From Mesotoga prima MesG1.Ag.4.2 (GTDB taxonomy: Bacteria > Thermotogota > Thermotogae > Petrotogales > Kosmotogaceae), in the NCBI RefSeq assembly GCF_000147715.2, contig NC_017934.1, positions 186,001 through 250,000 of the forward strand: a stretch of 64,000 bases of DNA. The letters run 5' to 3'. Positions 9,487 to 15,482 of the stretch are shown in pieces. The stretch's first letter is position 1. The number at the start of each line of letters is the position of its first letter. Made by a program: the position numbers and the translations under genes. The notes below the pieces were generated by a model. It worked only from the letters and a program-made list of their open reading frames with translations, was not told where the DNA came from and made no database searches.

Positions 9487-9837
9487 TCATGTGATATCTA
9501 GGAGAATCTTTATCCGATCCAGAACGTCGAGGATTACTTCTTCTGAGACCTGACCGATCTTCTTCTCCAATCTATTTCTCGAGATTGACCTTAAGTCCTC
9601 GGTCTTAATGTAGCTTGTTACATCGAGCCCTGTTTGCTCTCCGGAGATCTCAACATGCAGCGGGATAGATTTGTTCTTTGACGTTAAGGGAACAACAATC
9701 ACGAGCTCAGCAGGTCCATGATTGAACTGGTCGACCGAAATGACCAAACATGGTCTAAATCCAGATTGCTCTCTTCCTCTAGTTGGACTGAGGTTTGCCA
9801 ACCAGATTTCTCCTCTTAAAGGCAGCTCTCTATTCAT
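9487..9837 (-). CDS. MazF/PemK-like mRNA endonuclease toxin
   Basis: About 116 residues with the MazF/PemK SH3-like fold signature: RGEIWLANLSPTRGREQSGFRPCLVIS at the start, then VVPLTS, and TSYIKTEDLRSISRNRLEKKIG. These families cleave mRNA at short sequences and are held by a co-transcribed antitoxin. The ATG at 9837 overlaps the antitoxin stop; an in-frame GTG at 9843 is an alternative, and neither has a strong ribosome site, which suggests translational coupling. The neighbouring gene encodes the likely antitoxin. Cleavage specificity cannot be read. Confidence 0.88.
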   Translation of the reverse strand: MNRELPLRGEIWLANLSPTRGREQSGFRPCLVISVDQFNHGPAELVIVVPLTSKNKSIPLHVEISGEQTGLDVTSYIKTEDLRSISRNRLEKKIGQVSEEVILDVLDRIKILLDIT

Positions 9838-10081
9838 GATCACTTTGCCCGTCTAATAGTGAGCCTTCCCATTCTTCCCTCTCGTCTAACTCGCCTTTCC
9901 AAAGATCGGCTTGCTCTTTTAGTTTTGAGAAGGCTTCATTTGTATCTTCCAGGAGCAACTCACGTCTATATGATTCCACTGCTTTAGCAAGTATTTCTCC
10001 GATTGTTTCACCACTGGCGGAGGCCATTGCCTTAAGCCTCGAATGAGTTTCGAAAGGGACTCTGACTATTTGTGTTTTCAA
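9830..10081 (-). CDS. Ribbon-helix-helix-type antitoxin
   Basis: An 83-residue acidic-tailed protein. The N-terminus (TQIVRVPFETHSRLKAMASASGETIGEILAKAVESYRREL) fits a ribbon-helix-helix DNA-binding domain as in MazE or CopG-like antitoxins. The C-terminal tail (LWKGELDEREEWEGSLLDG) would wrap the toxin. The start is TTG at 10081, with AGGTGGTG upstream. The gene overlaps the toxin by 8 bases. By analogy the pair is autorepressed; no operator was identified with certainty. Confidence 0.8.
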   Translation of the reverse strand: MKTQIVRVPFETHSRLKAMASASGETIGEILAKAVESYRRELLLEDTNEAFSKLKEQADLWKGELDEREEWEGSLLDGQSDHE

Positions 10082-10822: not shown

Positions 10823-10866
10823 GCTTCTACTATGTCAACAGTTATAAAAAAGGCAGACTGAAAGGA

Positions 10867-12093
10867 TCAAGCAGTAGACCGGCAGGTAGCTACTGAAGAT
10901 ACTTTCAGCGAGTATTCAGGCTTCTGTTCTCCCTCCTTTTTAGAAGGAGTATAATCAGAAAGAGGATTCCTCTTGAAGAATTTCTCTTCTGAGTAGGGAG
11001 TCAAATCCCTAAGCATGGCGAAGGCGATTTTGAGGATGGTGTTCGCCAATGCACGGAGGGCATGAGCAGAGCTCTTGCCCTCGCTCTTTTTGTTGTCGTA
11101 GAATCTTTTCATCCATTTAGAGCTATTTGTTGCAGCAAGACTGGCTATATGAAGAGTCCCTCTGAGATAGTGATTGCAGTTACTTCTCATCTTGGTGGTA
11201 TTCTTGTTACCGCTTCCATAGTAAGTCGGAGTAGTTCCCGCGTACCTTTGAAGGTCTCTGTAGGAACTGAACTTGTGTGTTAGGTAGGCAACTATGAGCT
11301 GGCTGGCGATTATTGCTCCCACTCCAGGTAAGGTGAGAAGCACACTGAATTCGCTTTCCTCAATGATTTCTTTCATCTGCTTGCCTATCTCTTCCTTCAT
11401 CACTTTTTTCTCCATAGCGTACCTTGAGAAAGCGACTATCAATGTCCTTATGGAAGCTGGCACATATCTTTCAAGCGCGATTTTTCTGAGCTCCTTCAGC
11501 TTGCTTTTGAGATTGCTATTTATCAGGAAACCCATCTCTTTAAGCTTCTGGAGTATCTCTTTATCAGACATTGTGAGAAAGTCTTTTGCAGTAGGACAGA
11601 TGGATATAAACGCCAGTTTTCTGGCGGAAGTGCCACTGAAAACTTCTTTCACCTCCGGCCAGTACCTTTCAAGGTATGCATCCAGCCTTCCTATATCCTG
11701 CATCATAGATACATTTATCACAGCGTTCTCTTCAACCAGTACATCCAGCTCAAAAGCTATCCCTTCCCTCTTCACTTGCAAACACCATTCGGGGTTATGC
11801 TCATAGGTCATCGCTATTACCTTCGAATCAATGAAATCGCTCTTGCCTTCTATCACGAAGAATGACCTGGCTTCGCTCGATCTCCTGCTTGGAAGTATGT
11901 ACACCTGCCTGTTGTTCCTTAGAAGATAATCGACGATCCTGTTATTGCCATCCTCAATAACATAGACCGCCTCCTTTATCTTCAGAAGCTTCGCAAAATC
12001 TTCTTCCTTGTTCTTTAAAACTAACTTCTTACCCTGGTGCAAAAGATAACAGTAATGCTTCTTTCTTCCCCAATCAATTCCAACTATCTCCAT
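10867..12093 (-). CDS. IS110-family DEDD transposase (bridge-RNA-type recombinase)
   Basis: A 408-residue protein. The N-terminal RuvC-like DEDD domain shows GIDWG (D7), VIEDG (E47) and KSDFIDSKVIA (D86, D89). The C-terminal Transposase_20 domain shows LPGVGAIIASQLIAYL-like sequence, then FSSYRDLQRYAGTTPTYYGSGN with the probable catalytic serine in GSG, and NHYLRGTLHIASLAA. IS110 recombinases excise a circle and insert it using a structured guide RNA. The ATG at 12093 has GGAGGTG upstream. The frame is intact with both catalytic regions present, so the element may be active. Confidence 0.93.
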   Translation of the reverse strand: MEIVGIDWGRKKHYCYLLHQGKKLVLKNKEEDFAKLLKIKEAVYVIEDGNNRIVDYLLRNNRQVYILPSRRSSEARSFFVIEGKSDFIDSKVIAMTYEHNPEWCLQVKREGIAFELDVLVEENAVINVSMMQDIGRLDAYLERYWPEVKEVFSGTSARKLAFISICPTAKDFLTMSDKEILQKLKEMGFLINSNLKSKLKELRKIALERYVPASIRTLIVAFSRYAMEKKVMKEEIGKQMKEIIEESEFSVLLTLPGVGAIIASQLIVAYLTHKFSSYRDLQRYAGTTPTYYGSGNKNTTKMRSNCNHYLRGTLHIASLAATNSSKWMKRFYDNKKSEGKSSAHALRALANTILKIAFAMLRDLTPYSEEKFFKRNPLSDYTPSKKEGEQKPEYSLKVSSVATCRSTA

Positions 12094-12127
12094 AACTGCA
12101 CCTCCGTTGCTTGTTTGGCAGTTTGTT

Positions 12128-12290
12128 GAGTGTTTCGTTTACCGCTGTTTTGGTCCTGAAGCATTCCTGCTCCGGATATTCTACTATCGTTCCTGAACAC
12201 TCCTGGATGCAAGATGTTCTTGCCCAACTGGGCCTCGCAGGCTATAACCAAGGACTGGACTTATCTTGCATCCCCTGCCTCTCTTATTCT
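12128..12290 (-). ncRNA. Candidate IS110 bridge RNA
   Basis: Read on the minus strand, upstream of the transposase, there are two stem-loops of the bridge-RNA type. Stem-loop 1 has an 11-bp outer stem (12263-12273 with 12205-12215) and an apical hairpin GCCU-GCG-AGGC (12232-12242). Its left internal loop contains GUCCUUGGUU (12255-12246), the same sequence as the junction with the target flank (12307-12298). Stem-loop 2 has a 7-bp outer stem (12196-12202 with 12128-12134) and an apical hairpin GGAGCA-GGAA-UGCUUC (12158-12173). Its left internal loop contains AUAGUAGAA (12187-12179), identical to the element's other end (10833-10825). Two of the four expected guides are therefore visible. RNA ends are estimates. 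Confidence 0.7.
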
Positions 12291-12298
12291 AACAAACA

Positions 12299-12570
12299 AC
12301 CAAGGACGGCTCTTTGTAGCGGTCATCGGGTTCTCCGCTTTTAAGCTTGCAGCGGCTCTTCTCCCGCGAAGCGGAACTGGCTTCAAAATCGCCTCCTGCC
12401 GAAGGCAGCATTGCGACCTGGGCTGTTCTTGCCCAGCCTTGCGTCTTATTCCGTTCTTTCCGACCCCCTAGCGCTATCCCCGACCACTTCTTCAGAAGTG
12501 CAGATCCCGAAACGAGTTAGGGATTACAGTCCTTTGCATCATTCTGGCACGCTTCTGGCCAGAATTCGGT
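12299..12570. repeat. Second half of the interrupted family D repeat and other repeats
   Basis: The family D sequence resumes with CCAAGGACGGCTC. It is followed by a degenerate E-like or B-like stretch and an ATTCTGGC/GCCAGAAT hairpin (about 12542-12565). No gene is seen. Confidence 0.6.
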
Positions 12571-12761: not shown

Positions 12762-15482
12762 CTACTGCCTTTTTCTTGTAACCAGCTTCTTGATTTCGTA
12801 TATCCAAAGGATCGCGCTACCTAGGGCTAACGACAGGAGAAGATCCCATACACCCAGAGCCTGTGTGGTGAAGAGCCCCTGCATAAAGGGTACATATATA
12901 ACTGCTAGCTGAAGCCCGAAGCTCGCCAGTACTGCATACATTAGATAAGGATTCTCTTTGAACGGTGCGTTGAAGATCGATTTCGTTCTTGATCTCACAG
13001 ACAATGCAAAGAAGAGCTGAGAGAAGACAAGGGTTGAAAACAACATCGTTCTCCACGGCCCGTTGATATCGTTCATCCAGTAAACCAACCCAACGCCAAG
13101 AGAAAAGGCGGAGAGCAGTAGCCCGATAAGGATTACATTCCATCTTCCATTTGCCAGGACGTGTTCCTTCGTCGGGTTGGGTGGACGCTTCATTATATCC
13201 TTTTCCGGTGGTTCAACTGCGAGCGCCAATGCGGGGACTCCGTCCGTGACCAGGTTGAGCCAGAGTATCTGAAGGGGCGCCAGGGGGAGCGAGATACCAA
13301 AGAATGGTCCTAGAAGCATTATCCATATCTCTCCGAAGTTCGACGCCAGGATGTACCTTATGAACTTGTGTATGTTGTCGAAGATTGTCCTTCCTTCACG
13401 AATGGCCGAGACGATCGTGGTGAAGTTATCGTCGATGAGAACCATATCGGCGACTTCCTTTGTTACGTCAGTCCCCGTTATGCCCATAGCGATCCCTATG
13501 TCGGCCTGTTTGAGAGCGGGGGCGTCATTAACGCCATCACCCGTCATGGCGACGACATTTCCCTGTCTCTGAAGAGAGTCGACGATCTTCAGCTTGTGTT
13601 CCGGTGCGACTCGGGCATATACCGAGGTTTCTGCGGTCACTCTGTCGAGCTCCTCCTCCGTAAGGTTTTCGATTTCTCGACCCATCTTGACGTTTGACTT
13701 GTCGTCAACTATGGTGAGGCTCTCTGCTATATAACCGGCTGTCAGGGGATGGTCACCCGTAATCATAATCGGCCTTATACCTGCTTCACGGGCGGTCATT
13801 ATCGATTCTTTGACGCCTTCTCTTGCGGGATCCATCATTCCAAATATACCGGTGAAGATGAGATTTTTTTCTTCGACCTTTTTGTCTTCGACTTCCGCGG
13901 AGTTTACTGGCCTGAAGGCTACTCCAAGAACCCTCATTCCATTTGCCGCGAGGTTGTTGTTTGTCTCTATGATTCTTCTCTTCCAGTCATCATCTAACTC
14001 ATGTATCTCGTCACCTTCCAGTACTCTGTCACACACTTCAACGAGAGAATCGACGGCTCCCTTAGTAAATGCAACATATTGATCGACAGCATTTTCTCGA
14101 AGGTGTTCCGGAACGTCTGCAGGAATCTTACCCTTTGGATTCGACTTGATCTCGTGGATAGTTGTCATCCTCTTTCGCTCCGAATCGAAGGGGATCTCCA
14201 GGATCCTGGGCATTGCCTGTTCGAGGTCACTTTTCTCGATGCCGACTCTGTAAGCCGCATATACTAGCGCGCCCTCCGTCGGATCTCCGATCACATCTGC
14301 CTGCTGCTTTTTGTGGACGGGAGGTTTGATCTCGGCATCGTTGCATAGCGCGGCCGCTGTGAGCATTATTTCAAAGGATTTATTGTCGTCTTCGGGGAGG
14401 GCCTCGGGATCGGGTTCATTTTCTTTTCCAAAGTCCAGTGTCCGTCCGGCCATCTCTACGACTGTCACTTTCATTCTGTTTTCGGTAATCGTTCCCGTCT
14501 TGTCGGAACAGATTACGGTAACTGAACCAAGCGTCTCGACGGCCATCAGTTTCCGAACGAGAGCGTTCTTCTTCAACATTCGCTGAGCCCCAAGAGCCAG
14601 TGCAATAGTAACAACTGTCGGAAGTCCTTCTGGAACCGCGGCCACTGCGAAAGAGACTGCAGTCATGAACATCAGCTCTAGATCTTCGCCCCTCAGCAAG
14701 CCCATTACGAAGATCACACCCACTATTCCTAGCGCGATCAAGGCAAGAATCTTACCGAGCTGGTCGATATTCTTCTGCAGCGGGGTCTGGGTCTCGGCAG
14801 TATCTTGAAGCATTGCTGCAATCTTCCCGAGTTCGGTTTCCATTCCCGTTGCCGTCACTATTCCGACTCCGCGGCCGTAAGTGACAACCGTCCCGGAATA
14901 CGCCATGTTTTTGCGGTCACCGAGAGAGGGGTTCTCTTCTTCGATAGGTTTAGTAGTCTTCTCCACCGCCTCCGATTCGCCAGTAAGAGCTGACTCCTGA
15001 ATCTTCAGATTGGTTGCCTCGATAAGCCGCATATCTGCCGGCACGATATTTCCGGCCTCTAGAATCACAATATCTCCGGGAACAATCTCTGTTGAGTTTA
15101 TCTCCACGATCTTTCCGTCCCGCCTGACCTTCACTCTGGGCACGGACATCTTCTTCAATGCAGCCATTGCCTTTTCGGCTCTGTATTCTTGAGTGAACCC
15201 CAGGATGGTGTTCAGGGCTACAATCGCAAGAATTACTATCGTATCCCTTAATTCACCGACGAAGGCCGTAATCACCGAAGCAACAATCAGGATTATTACC
15301 ATCACAGACTTCAGTTGTGAAAGAAGAATCTTCCATGCGCTGCGCCTGTTCTTCTCTGTAAGCTCGTTCAAGCCATACTGTTCTATTCTCTCCTTTGCCT
15401 TTGCCCCGGAGAGCCCCTCGTTTGAGCTTGATCCGAGTTCTTTTATGACCTCTTCTATTGTTTCCTGATGGTGTTTTGCCAT
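12762..15482 (-). CDS. P2A-type calcium-transporting ATPase
   Basis: A 906-residue P-type ATPase of the SERCA/PMR1 class that exports Ca2+ (possibly Mn2+) at the cost of ATP. An N-terminal cation ATPase domain precedes TM1-2. TGES (167-170) lies in the actuator domain and PEGLP (284-288) in TM4. DKTGT (327-331) carries the phosphorylated aspartate. TGDGVND (647-653) follows. The site II calcium ligands are present as N715/E718 in ASNFGE and N743/T746/D747 in NLVTDG. The ATG at 15482 has GGAGG upstream. The gene is monocistronic; repeats begin close beyond both ends. Length is normal for the family, with no sign of damage. Confidence 0.95.
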   Translation of the reverse strand: MAKHHQETIEEVIKELGSSSNEGLSGAKAKERIEQYGLNELTEKNRRSAWKILLSQLKSVMVIILIVASVITAFVGELRDTIVILAIVALNTILGFTQEYRAEKAMAALKKMSVPRVKVRRDGKIVEINSTEIVPGDIVILEAGNIVPADMRLIEATNLKIQESALTGESEAVEKTTKPIEEENPSLGDRKNMAYSGTVVTYGRGVGIVTATGMETELGKIAAMLQDTAETQTPLQKNIDQLGKILALIALGIVGVIFVMGLLRGEDLELMFMTAVSFAVAAVPEGLPTVVTIALALGAQRMLKKNALVRKLMAVETLGSVTVICSDKTGTITENRMKVTVVEMAGRTLDFGKENEPDPEALPEDDNKSFEIMLTAAALCNDAEIKPPVHKKQQADVIGDPTEGALVYAAYRVGIEKSDLEQAMPRILEIPFDSERKRMTTIHEIKSNPKGKIPADVPEHLRENAVDQYVAFTKGAVDSLVEVCDRVLEGDEIHELDDDWKRRIIETNNNLAANGMRVLGVAFRPVNSAEVEDKKVEEKNLIFTGIFGMMDPAREGVKESIMTAREAGIRPIMITGDHPLTAGYIAESLTIVDDKSNVKMGREIENLTEEELDRVTAETSVYARVAPEHKLKIVDSLQRQGNVVAMTGDGVNDAPALKQADIGIAMGITGTDVTKEVADMVLIDDNFTTIVSAIREGRTIFDNIHKFIRYILASNFGEIWIMLLGPFFGISLPLAPLQILWLNLVTDGVPALALAVEPPEKDIMKRPPNPTKEHVLANGRWNVILIGLLLSAFSLGVGLVYWMNDINGPWRTMLFSTLVFSQLFFALSVRSRTKSIFNAPFKENPYLMYAVLASFGLQLAVIYVPFMQGLFTTQALGVWDLLLSLALGSAILWIYEIKKLVTRKRQ

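What the first reader, a model, noticed from the sequence alone, without database searches (positions are those of the whole stretch)
12128..12307. IS110 bridge RNA with visible target and donor guides
Upstream of the transposase, on its strand, are two consecutive stem / internal loop / apical hairpin structures, as in IS110 bridge RNAs. The first loop holds GTCCTTGGTT, matching the junction with the left target half (12307-12298; 8 nt of this are pure target). The second holds ATAGTAGAA, identical to the element's distal end (10833-10825). Target guide in the first loop and donor guide in the second is the order known for IS621. The right-hand guides are less clear: CAAGAAC in loop 1 can pair with 5 of 7 bases of the right target half, and no donor-right guide was identified.
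Basis: partly seen in the sequence, partly recalled or inferred. Interest (0 to 1): 0.9.

Follow-up and report, generated by a model that had tools for sequence, protein, structure and literature searches.

The report
Mobile element with self-written targeting RNA
A small jumping DNA element carries, beside its one gene, a predicted structured RNA whose two loops spell out the site it sits in and its own ends; this is a new member of the recently described bridge-RNA elements, and sister copies whose guides differ by one letter sit at sites that differ in the same letter.

Summary
The finding holds. Window 10823-12298 (minus strand, 1476 bp) is an IS110-group insertion sequence; its boundaries are fixed by an empty site at the same locus in a related genome. 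The leader (12298-12094) is predicted to fold into two stem / loop / hairpin units (z -4.0); the second has compensatory changes across clades. Guides: LTG 12255-12247 equals the left target 9/9; LDG 12187-12179 equals the right end 9/9. The missing donor-right guide is AAACAGC, 12150-12144, complementary to donor core GC plus the first five element bases (7/7). I place the target-right guide at TTGGGC (12227-12222) instead of CAAGAAC; its match is not above chance. The excised circle would rebuild a TTGACA-17-TAGAAT promoter. Relatives with other targets carry other guides. Sister copies with a one-letter guide difference sit at targets with the same difference, 7 bp apart in one repeat motif, but independent copies are few. 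Oddities: target core GT versus donor core GC, and 6 of 10 left-end relics break at the guide DNA. I assess this as a new member of a known kind. No RNA, circle or transposition was observed.

The parts
10823..12298 (-). whole insertion sequence, 1476 bp, starting TGTTTG and ending TAGAAGC (donor core GC counted as part of the element)
   Evidence: empty site at the same locus in G012 (L079): alignment breaks exactly here
10867..12093 (-). IS110-family recombinase gene, 408 aa, with its stop codon
12301..12307 (-). left target half GTCCTTG, outside the element
12299..12300 (-). target core GT at the left junction
   Evidence: GT also in the empty site and in empty repeats
10823..10824 (-). donor core GC at the right junction
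   Evidence: same in all 6 right ends of this clade that were read
10825..10833 (-). left donor sequence ATAGTAGAA (right end of the element)
10833..10838 (-). TTGACA, -35 box of the promoter rebuilt in the circle
12286..12291 (-). TAGAAT, -10 box, 17 bp from TTGACA in the circle only
12114..12283 (-). predicted bridge RNA (limits approximate; 3' end unknown)
   Evidence: folds with z -3.99; no RNA data
12275..12279 (-). enclosing stem, 5' arm GGCAG
12117..12121 (-). enclosing stem, 3' arm CTGCC
12263..12273 (-). target-loop stem, 5' arm, 11 perfect pairs
12205..12215 (-). target-loop stem, 3' arm
12247..12255 (-). left target guide GTCCTTG-GT
   Evidence: 9/9 with left target and core, 0 of 4000 random
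12232..12242 (-). apical hairpin of the target loop, GCCTGCGAGGC
   Evidence: direct reading; coordinates
12222..12227 (-). proposed right target guide TTGGGC (pairs GC-CCAA; GT-CC of the empty target with one G-T wobble)
   Evidence: placed by position, as in clade M where the guide matches 6 or 7 of 7; match in this copy not significant
12196..12202 (-). donor-loop stem, 5' arm
12128..12134 (-). donor-loop stem, 3' arm
12179..12187 (-). left donor guide ATAGTAGAA
   Evidence: 9/9, 0 of 4000 random
12154..12176 (-). apical hairpin of the donor loop with a bulged A present in all 14 aligned copies
   Evidence: alignment; compensatory pairs
12144..12150 (-). right donor guide AAACAGC, pairs GC-TGTTT
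   Evidence: 7/7, p 0.001; 7/7 in 14 of 14 copies of three clades with that end known

Best explanation
The region encodes the bridge RNA of an IS110-group insertion sequence. The element excises as a circle; joining right end to left end makes a sigma-70-like promoter that transcribes the leader. The RNA binds the recombinase. Its first loop (LTG GTCCTTG-GT, RTG probably TTGGGC) selects a site in a dispersed genomic repeat; its second loop (LDG ATAGTAGAA, RDG AAACAGC) holds the element's own joined ends. The recombinase then joins the two after the core dinucleotide. Shown by sequence: boundaries, guide-target and guide-end identity, predicted structure, promoter motif complete only in the circle, guide changes among relatives. 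Inferred from IS621: excision, expression, RNA binding, strand exchange.
For: Pfam domains of the IS110 recombinase and profile matches to ISCro4 and IS621 recombinases. Boundaries from an empty site. LTG 9/9, LDG 9/9, RDG 7/7 in loop sides set by the stems. Across 17 copies of three clades tested, RDG is 7/7 in 14 of 14 with that end known, LDG 8/9 or 9/9 in 15 of 15, LTG 9/9 in 6 of 15; many of these copies are near-identical within a clade. Core and RDG change together: GC with AAACAGC, GT with CTACAAC, GA with CTACATC. L055 and L056, 99.3% identical, carry ATGGGAC and TAGGGAC in the target loop beside right targets GTCCCAT and GTCCCTA. Window LTG and target both read GTCCTTGGT; in L021, L022 and G010 L103 both read GTCCTTCGT. 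Donor loop: 135 of 136 cells paired in 10 distinct sequences, 3 pairs with two-sided changes, slid controls 29-56%. Circle promoter 11 of 12 against a score of 7 at the integrated left end.
Against: No RNA, circle or transposition data. RTG match in the window copy is 5/7, p 0.13, and right-target matches within the window clade and clade K are no better than shuffled (p 0.75, 0.77; M p 0.20). LTG matches in five of 15 copies are 5-6 of 9, at chance (L042, L055, L056, L057, L045); G008 L105 is 6/9 and G006 L102 2/9. Within-clade permutation of left targets: W p 0.24, M p 0.20, K p 0.05; the across-clade p values are at their floor but rest on three clades. For clade M I first read the core as TC and settled on GT partly because it fits the RDG, so its matches are not fully independent of where I set the ends. 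LDG does not pair with the core. The minimum-energy fold pairs the two sides of the target loop. In one search, 36 of 500 shuffles reach 3 pairs with two-sided changes and 405 of 500 the number of pair types, though none reaches the observed paired cells or covariation score. No Rfam family matches. The IS621 5' stem-loop is not predicted; an enclosing stem is.
Confidence: 0.93

Rival explanations
1. The RNA is a seekRNA-type target guide only: a short processed RNA with the target loop, while the protein recognises the element's ends itself; the donor loop matches are historical or serve another role.
For: A 74-nt seekRNA with matches to both target strands was found with an IS110-type transposase (ISEc21; PMC11187229, passages).
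Against: LDG and RDG match the ends in all copies tested (15 of 15 at 8-9 of 9; 14 of 14 at 7/7) and RDG changes with the core and end sequence among three clades; donor-loop pairing is conserved.
Confidence: 0.04
2. The structured leader is a regulatory element of the transposase mRNA, and the guide identities are by-products of the promoter and end sequences.
For: It lies directly upstream of the start codon (12093); small RNAs thought to modulate an IS110 relative, ISPpu9, are mentioned in PMC11208160 (section 5).
Against: It does not explain the 9/9 match of loop 1 to a flank outside the element, or the change of loop 1 with the flank between sister copies.
Confidence: 0.02
3. The matches are chance in a repeat-rich neighbourhood.
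For: The target is a dispersed repeat; the RTG match is at chance.
Against: LTG and LDG each 0 of 4000 random 9-mers; RDG p 0.001, and it recurs at the same structural place in all three clades.
Confidence: 0.01

Closest known systems
IS621 bridge RNA and recombinase (IS110 group; PMC11208160, PMC11208158)
   Same: DEDD plus serine-domain recombinase; bridge RNA in the left end; target loop first, donor loop second; 5' side of each loop copies the left half, 3' side complements the right half plus core; insertion into a dispersed repeat; promoter rebuilt in the circle.
   Different: Protein relation seen by profile (no single-sequence search was run). Enclosing stem instead of a predicted 5' stem-loop. 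Core GT in the target and GC in the donor, whereas IS621 and related orthologues have CT at both ends with the second T almost invariant. LDG does not cover the core here.
ISEc21 seekRNA (IS110-type; PMC11187229)
   Same: Upstream non-coding region; bottom-strand match before top-strand match; no net target duplication; promoter at the circle junction.
   Different: Only target guidance is described in the passages I saw; here donor guides are also evident.
ISEc11 / ISXne4 natural reprogramming (IS1111; PMC11187229)
   Same: Related elements whose guides and targets changed together.
   Different: Here the guide difference is a single base between sister copies, with insertion points 7 bp apart in the same repeat motif; IS1111 elements usually carry the RNA downstream.

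Membership tests
IS110 family, IS110 group | recombinase with DEDD RuvC-like and Transposase_20 domains | tested here: met
   PF01548 39.6 bits, PF02371 55 bits, both above cut-off; D7, E47, D86, D89 and S294 are invariant in the 7 aligned sequences; that these are the catalytic residues is by analogy, S294 falling opposite the serine of ISCro4 in the alignment
IS110 family, IS110 group | left non-coding end longer than the right | tested here: met
   205 nt against 44 nt from the boundaries and the gene
IS110 family, IS110 group | bridge RNA in the left end with target loop then donor loop | tested here: met
   (prediction and comparison only, no RNA data)
IS110 family, IS110 group | four guides pairing target and donor, core included | tested here: inconclusive
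   LTG, LDG, RDG matched; RTG 5/7 p 0.13; LDG lacks the core
IS110 family, IS110 group | circle junction rebuilds a promoter | tested here: met
   TTGACA-17-TAGAAT, 11 of 12; 4 of 2000 random 120-mers as good; motif only
IS110 family, IS110 group | excision as a scarless circle and RNA-directed insertion | not testable with these tools
   only the empty site and junction sequences support it
IS110 family, IS110 group | IS621-type 5' stem-loop before the target loop | tested here: not met
   no separate hairpin before 12279 in the folds; an enclosing stem instead. I do not treat this as defining, since bridge RNA structures are described as diverse (PMC11208160, passage)
IS1111 group | guide RNA downstream of the gene | tested here: not met
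   structured region with guides is upstream; right end is 44 nt
IS1111 group | subterminal inverted repeats of 7-17 bp | not tested
   not searched for

The most novel reading that the evidence does not exclude
The element works with two different cores: its target core is GT and its donor core GC, and both right-hand guides (the RTG as I place it) end in GC, which can pair GC fully and GT by a G-T wobble. After insertion the left junction keeps the target's GT and the right junction the donor's GC, as expected if both ends inherit the top-strand core of the IS621-type exchange. Of the left junctions of this clade that were read, 12 of 14 are GT (exceptions: AC in L102, GC in the 28-nt scrap L113; the identical locus L117 counted with L116), and 6 of 6 right junctions are GC. 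If so, natural junctions record which strand's core survives, and equal cores are not required.
Probability: 0.5. Interest if true: 0.6.

Novelty: new member of a known kind. Interest (0 to 1): 0.45.

Why it matters
It gives a readable natural bridge-RNA element from what is probably a Thermotogota genome (recalled), distant in protein sequence from IS621, together with two other clades that use other targets and cores. The sister copies give a natural reprogramming contrast of one letter. The unequal cores, and cores not ending in T, bear on how core mismatches and the bottom strand are resolved, which the IS621 structure paper leaves as a possibility rather than a result. The breakage at the guide in 6 of 10 relics suggests that a guide copied in the DNA is also a weak point of the element.

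Tried and rejected
Rfam at gathering and at permissive E-value: no bridge-RNA match; the two weak hits on the opposite strand (XIST A repeat E 0.021, MIR1031 E 1.1) are taken as chance. Protein scans of genome contigs with the single protein found nothing, with the alignment one record; viral contigs none. Promoter scan of the integrated sequence found nothing at the left end. Empty sites at the same locus for the other copies were sought in four genomes; no clean one was found; for L021 I rely on empty repeats. MAFFT alignment A2 misplaced the 5' arm of the window's clade, so I counted pairs only for the donor loop (A3); the target-loop stem rests on folds and direct reading. The first guide-match script took wrong loop limits in several cells and was redone. 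Handshake pairing (position names from PMC11208158): the first base after RDG can pair target base 7 in 13 of 15 copies, but not in the window copy; as the counts follow three clades I give it little weight. Dropped before counts: L024 from all guide tests (left end missing); L044 (RNA identical to L058); from the structure alignment also L023, L051, L057 (identical to L021, L048, L056); L117 (L116 and L117 lie in the loci L007 and L008, 3117 of 3117 bases alike). In the position-7 test, 7 of the 11 rows printed were used: L102 (flank unmatched) and L115, L116, L109 (broken inside the guide) were left out; at that position L102, L116 and L109 read C/C and L115 T/C. L106 and L108 were not put into that call. 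L111 (left part lost) was not counted among the relics.

Full report
What is there. The window lies in G000, contig C1 (2,974,229 bp); from that length I think it is a Mesotoga, but this is recalled, not a tool result. On the minus strand, 12093-10867 encodes a 408-aa protein with the two IS110-family domains. At E 1e-60 the profile of this protein and six relatives finds matches in 6 of 103 genomes of the phylum, all of the same family of genomes; weaker IS110 relatives elsewhere were not looked at. The relatives used below are 37-39% identical. By profile the nearest solved proteins are the ISCro4 and IS621 recombinases.

Boundaries. A related genome (G012) has the same locus without the element (flanks 92% and 96% identical)...GTACTTG-GT-CCTTCGTCC.... 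The alignment to the window breaks exactly between GT and CC. The element is therefore 10823-12298, 1476 bp, TGTTTG...TAGAAGC. The target is a dispersed repeat; GTCCTTSGTCC occurs 34 times in the genome (21 with G, 13 with C by my count of the list; reversed-pattern control 2). The own genome holds four full copies (window, L021, L022, L023), one copy lacking the left end (L024) and three left-end scraps, two of them in identical 3117-base loci. A 370-bp right-end relic, 94% identical, lies in G006.

The RNA. 12283-12114 folds at -55.8 kcal/mol, z -3.99, and the homologous regions of one copy each of two other clades fold similarly well (z -3.71, -4.28). In the minimum-energy or centroid folds one sees an enclosing stem, a target-loop stem with a hairpin, and a donor-loop stem with a hairpin; the guide-bearing sides of the target loop are partly paired with each other in the minimum-energy folds. 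For the donor loop, 135 of 136 cells pair in 10 distinct sequences and three pairs have changes on both sides; slid controls pair 29-56%; none of 500 shuffles reaches the observed pairing or covariation score, but 36 of 500 reach three two-sided pairs and 405 of 500 the number of pair types. The two-sided changes all separate the window clade from the others.

Guides. I defined each loop side by its flanking stems and asked for the best placement of the real target or end, against random pieces of the window. Window copy: LTG 9/9 (0 of 4000 random), LDG 9/9 (0 of 4000), RDG 7/7 (p 0.001), RT 5/7 (p 0.13). For RTG I prefer TTGGGC (12227-12222): in clade M the matching guide lies in the middle of the 3' side, some bases before the stem, and TTGGGC sits likewise while CAAGAAC abuts the stem. 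The match itself does not decide it.

Covariation. Clade M: core GT, RDG CTACAAC; clade K (G002, G003): core GA, RDG CTACATC; window clade: core GC, RDG AAACAGC; 7/7 in 14 of 14 copies with the end known. LDG is 8/9 or 9/9 in 15 of 15. LTG is 9/9 in 6 of 15, 8/9 in 2, 7/9 in 2, 5-6/9 in 5. RT is 7/7 in 3 of 15, 6/7 in 3, 5/7 in 7, 4/7 in 2. Across all copies the five permutation tests give p 0.00005 (the floor), but this mostly reflects three clades; within clades left-target p is 0.24 (W), 0.20 (M), 0.05 (K), right-target p 0.75, 0.20, 0.77. For clade M no empty site at the same locus was used; I moved its core from TC to GT because GT stands at both junctions and fits the RDG, so its scores are not fully independent. 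L055 and L056 differ in the target loop (ATGGGAC, TAGGGAC) and in their right targets accordingly (GTCCCAT, GTCCCTA); L057, with the same RNA as L056, has GTCCCTT (6/7).

The one-letter contrast. Window: guide and target GTCCTTGGT. L021, L022 and G010 L103: guide and target GTCCTTCGT. L023: guide GTCCTTCGT, target GTCCTCCGT. The G and C sites lie 7 bp apart in the same repeat motif. G014 L104 is G/G but breaks just after the guide, so its guide could be partly from the flank; G008 L105 is C/C at that position, 6/9 overall. With these two, concordance at that position is 2 G/G and 5 C/C, Fisher p 0.048; without them 1 and 4, which by arithmetic would be 0.2. Given 21 G and 13 C sites, three C guides at C sites and one G guide at a G site has probability 0.035 if sites were picked blindly. 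It is suggestive, not proof. G006 L102 does not match (2/9).

Promoter. In the circle, TTGACA of the right end and TAGAAT of the left end come 17 bp apart (11 of 12 matches; 4 of 2000 random 120-mers as good; shuffle p 0.0013); at the integrated left end the best score is 7, in the right end alone 8.5. Clade K shows the same junction promoter with 18 bp; in clade M the best motif lies inside the left end and not across the junction. That IS110 circles rebuild a promoter is stated in PMC11208160 (section 5).

Cores. IS621 and related orthologues have CT at both ends, the second T almost invariant, and top strands are cut after the core (PMC11208158, section 8 and passages). Here the target core is GT and the donor core GC. 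Left junctions of this clade are GT in 12 of 14 read, right junctions GC in 6 of 6. This is as expected if each junction keeps the top-strand core. I saw no report of it; my literature searches were few, were not all aimed at this point, and cover only an open-access library.

Decay. Of 10 distinct left-end relics in six genomes, 6 break at the guide DNA (left-end positions 44-54; binomial p 7e-6 against even breakage over 186 positions; break points read by me). In L116, L108 and L109 the sequence goes on much like the third GTCCTTCG motif of the target repeat, by eye. Deletion between the guide and a target-like motif by short homology is the simple reading.

Known or new. The mechanism is that described for IS621 (PMC11208160: outline, sections 5 and 6, passages; PMC11208158: section 8 and passages), and natural reprogramming is described for IS1111 relatives (PMC11187229: passages). 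I file this as a new member of a known kind.

Noticed in passing
L115, L116/L117, L108, L109, L105, L104 (own genome, G010, G006, G008, G014): Left-end relics of the element break at the LTG DNA in 6 of 10 distinct cases, as if the guide recombined with a target-like motif downstream.
   Followed up: partly
L055, L056, L057 (own genome), L042, L058, L064, L068: A second IS110-group family (37-38% identity) whose target looks like a palindromic repeat around GGGACTGACC...GGTCTGTCCC, with a target-loop guide varying with the right target in L055 and L056.
   Followed up: partly
L102 (G006 C1:2873165-2873337): Left-end relic whose flank does not match its guide but holds ATAGTAGAA, the left donor sequence, 3 bases before the element start; unexplained.
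   Followed up: no
window 9487-9843 and 9830-10081, minus strand: MazF/PemK-like toxin gene (PF02452, E 4e-32) behind a small ORF without Pfam match, in the place of an antitoxin.
   Followed up: partly
window 12762-15482, minus strand: P-type cation-transporting ATPase gene upstream of the element.
   Followed up: partly
window about 15625, 15632, 15807, 27729, 57730, 57737, 58464: Further copies of the target repeat motif GTCCTTSGTCC within the window (positions converted).
   Followed up: no
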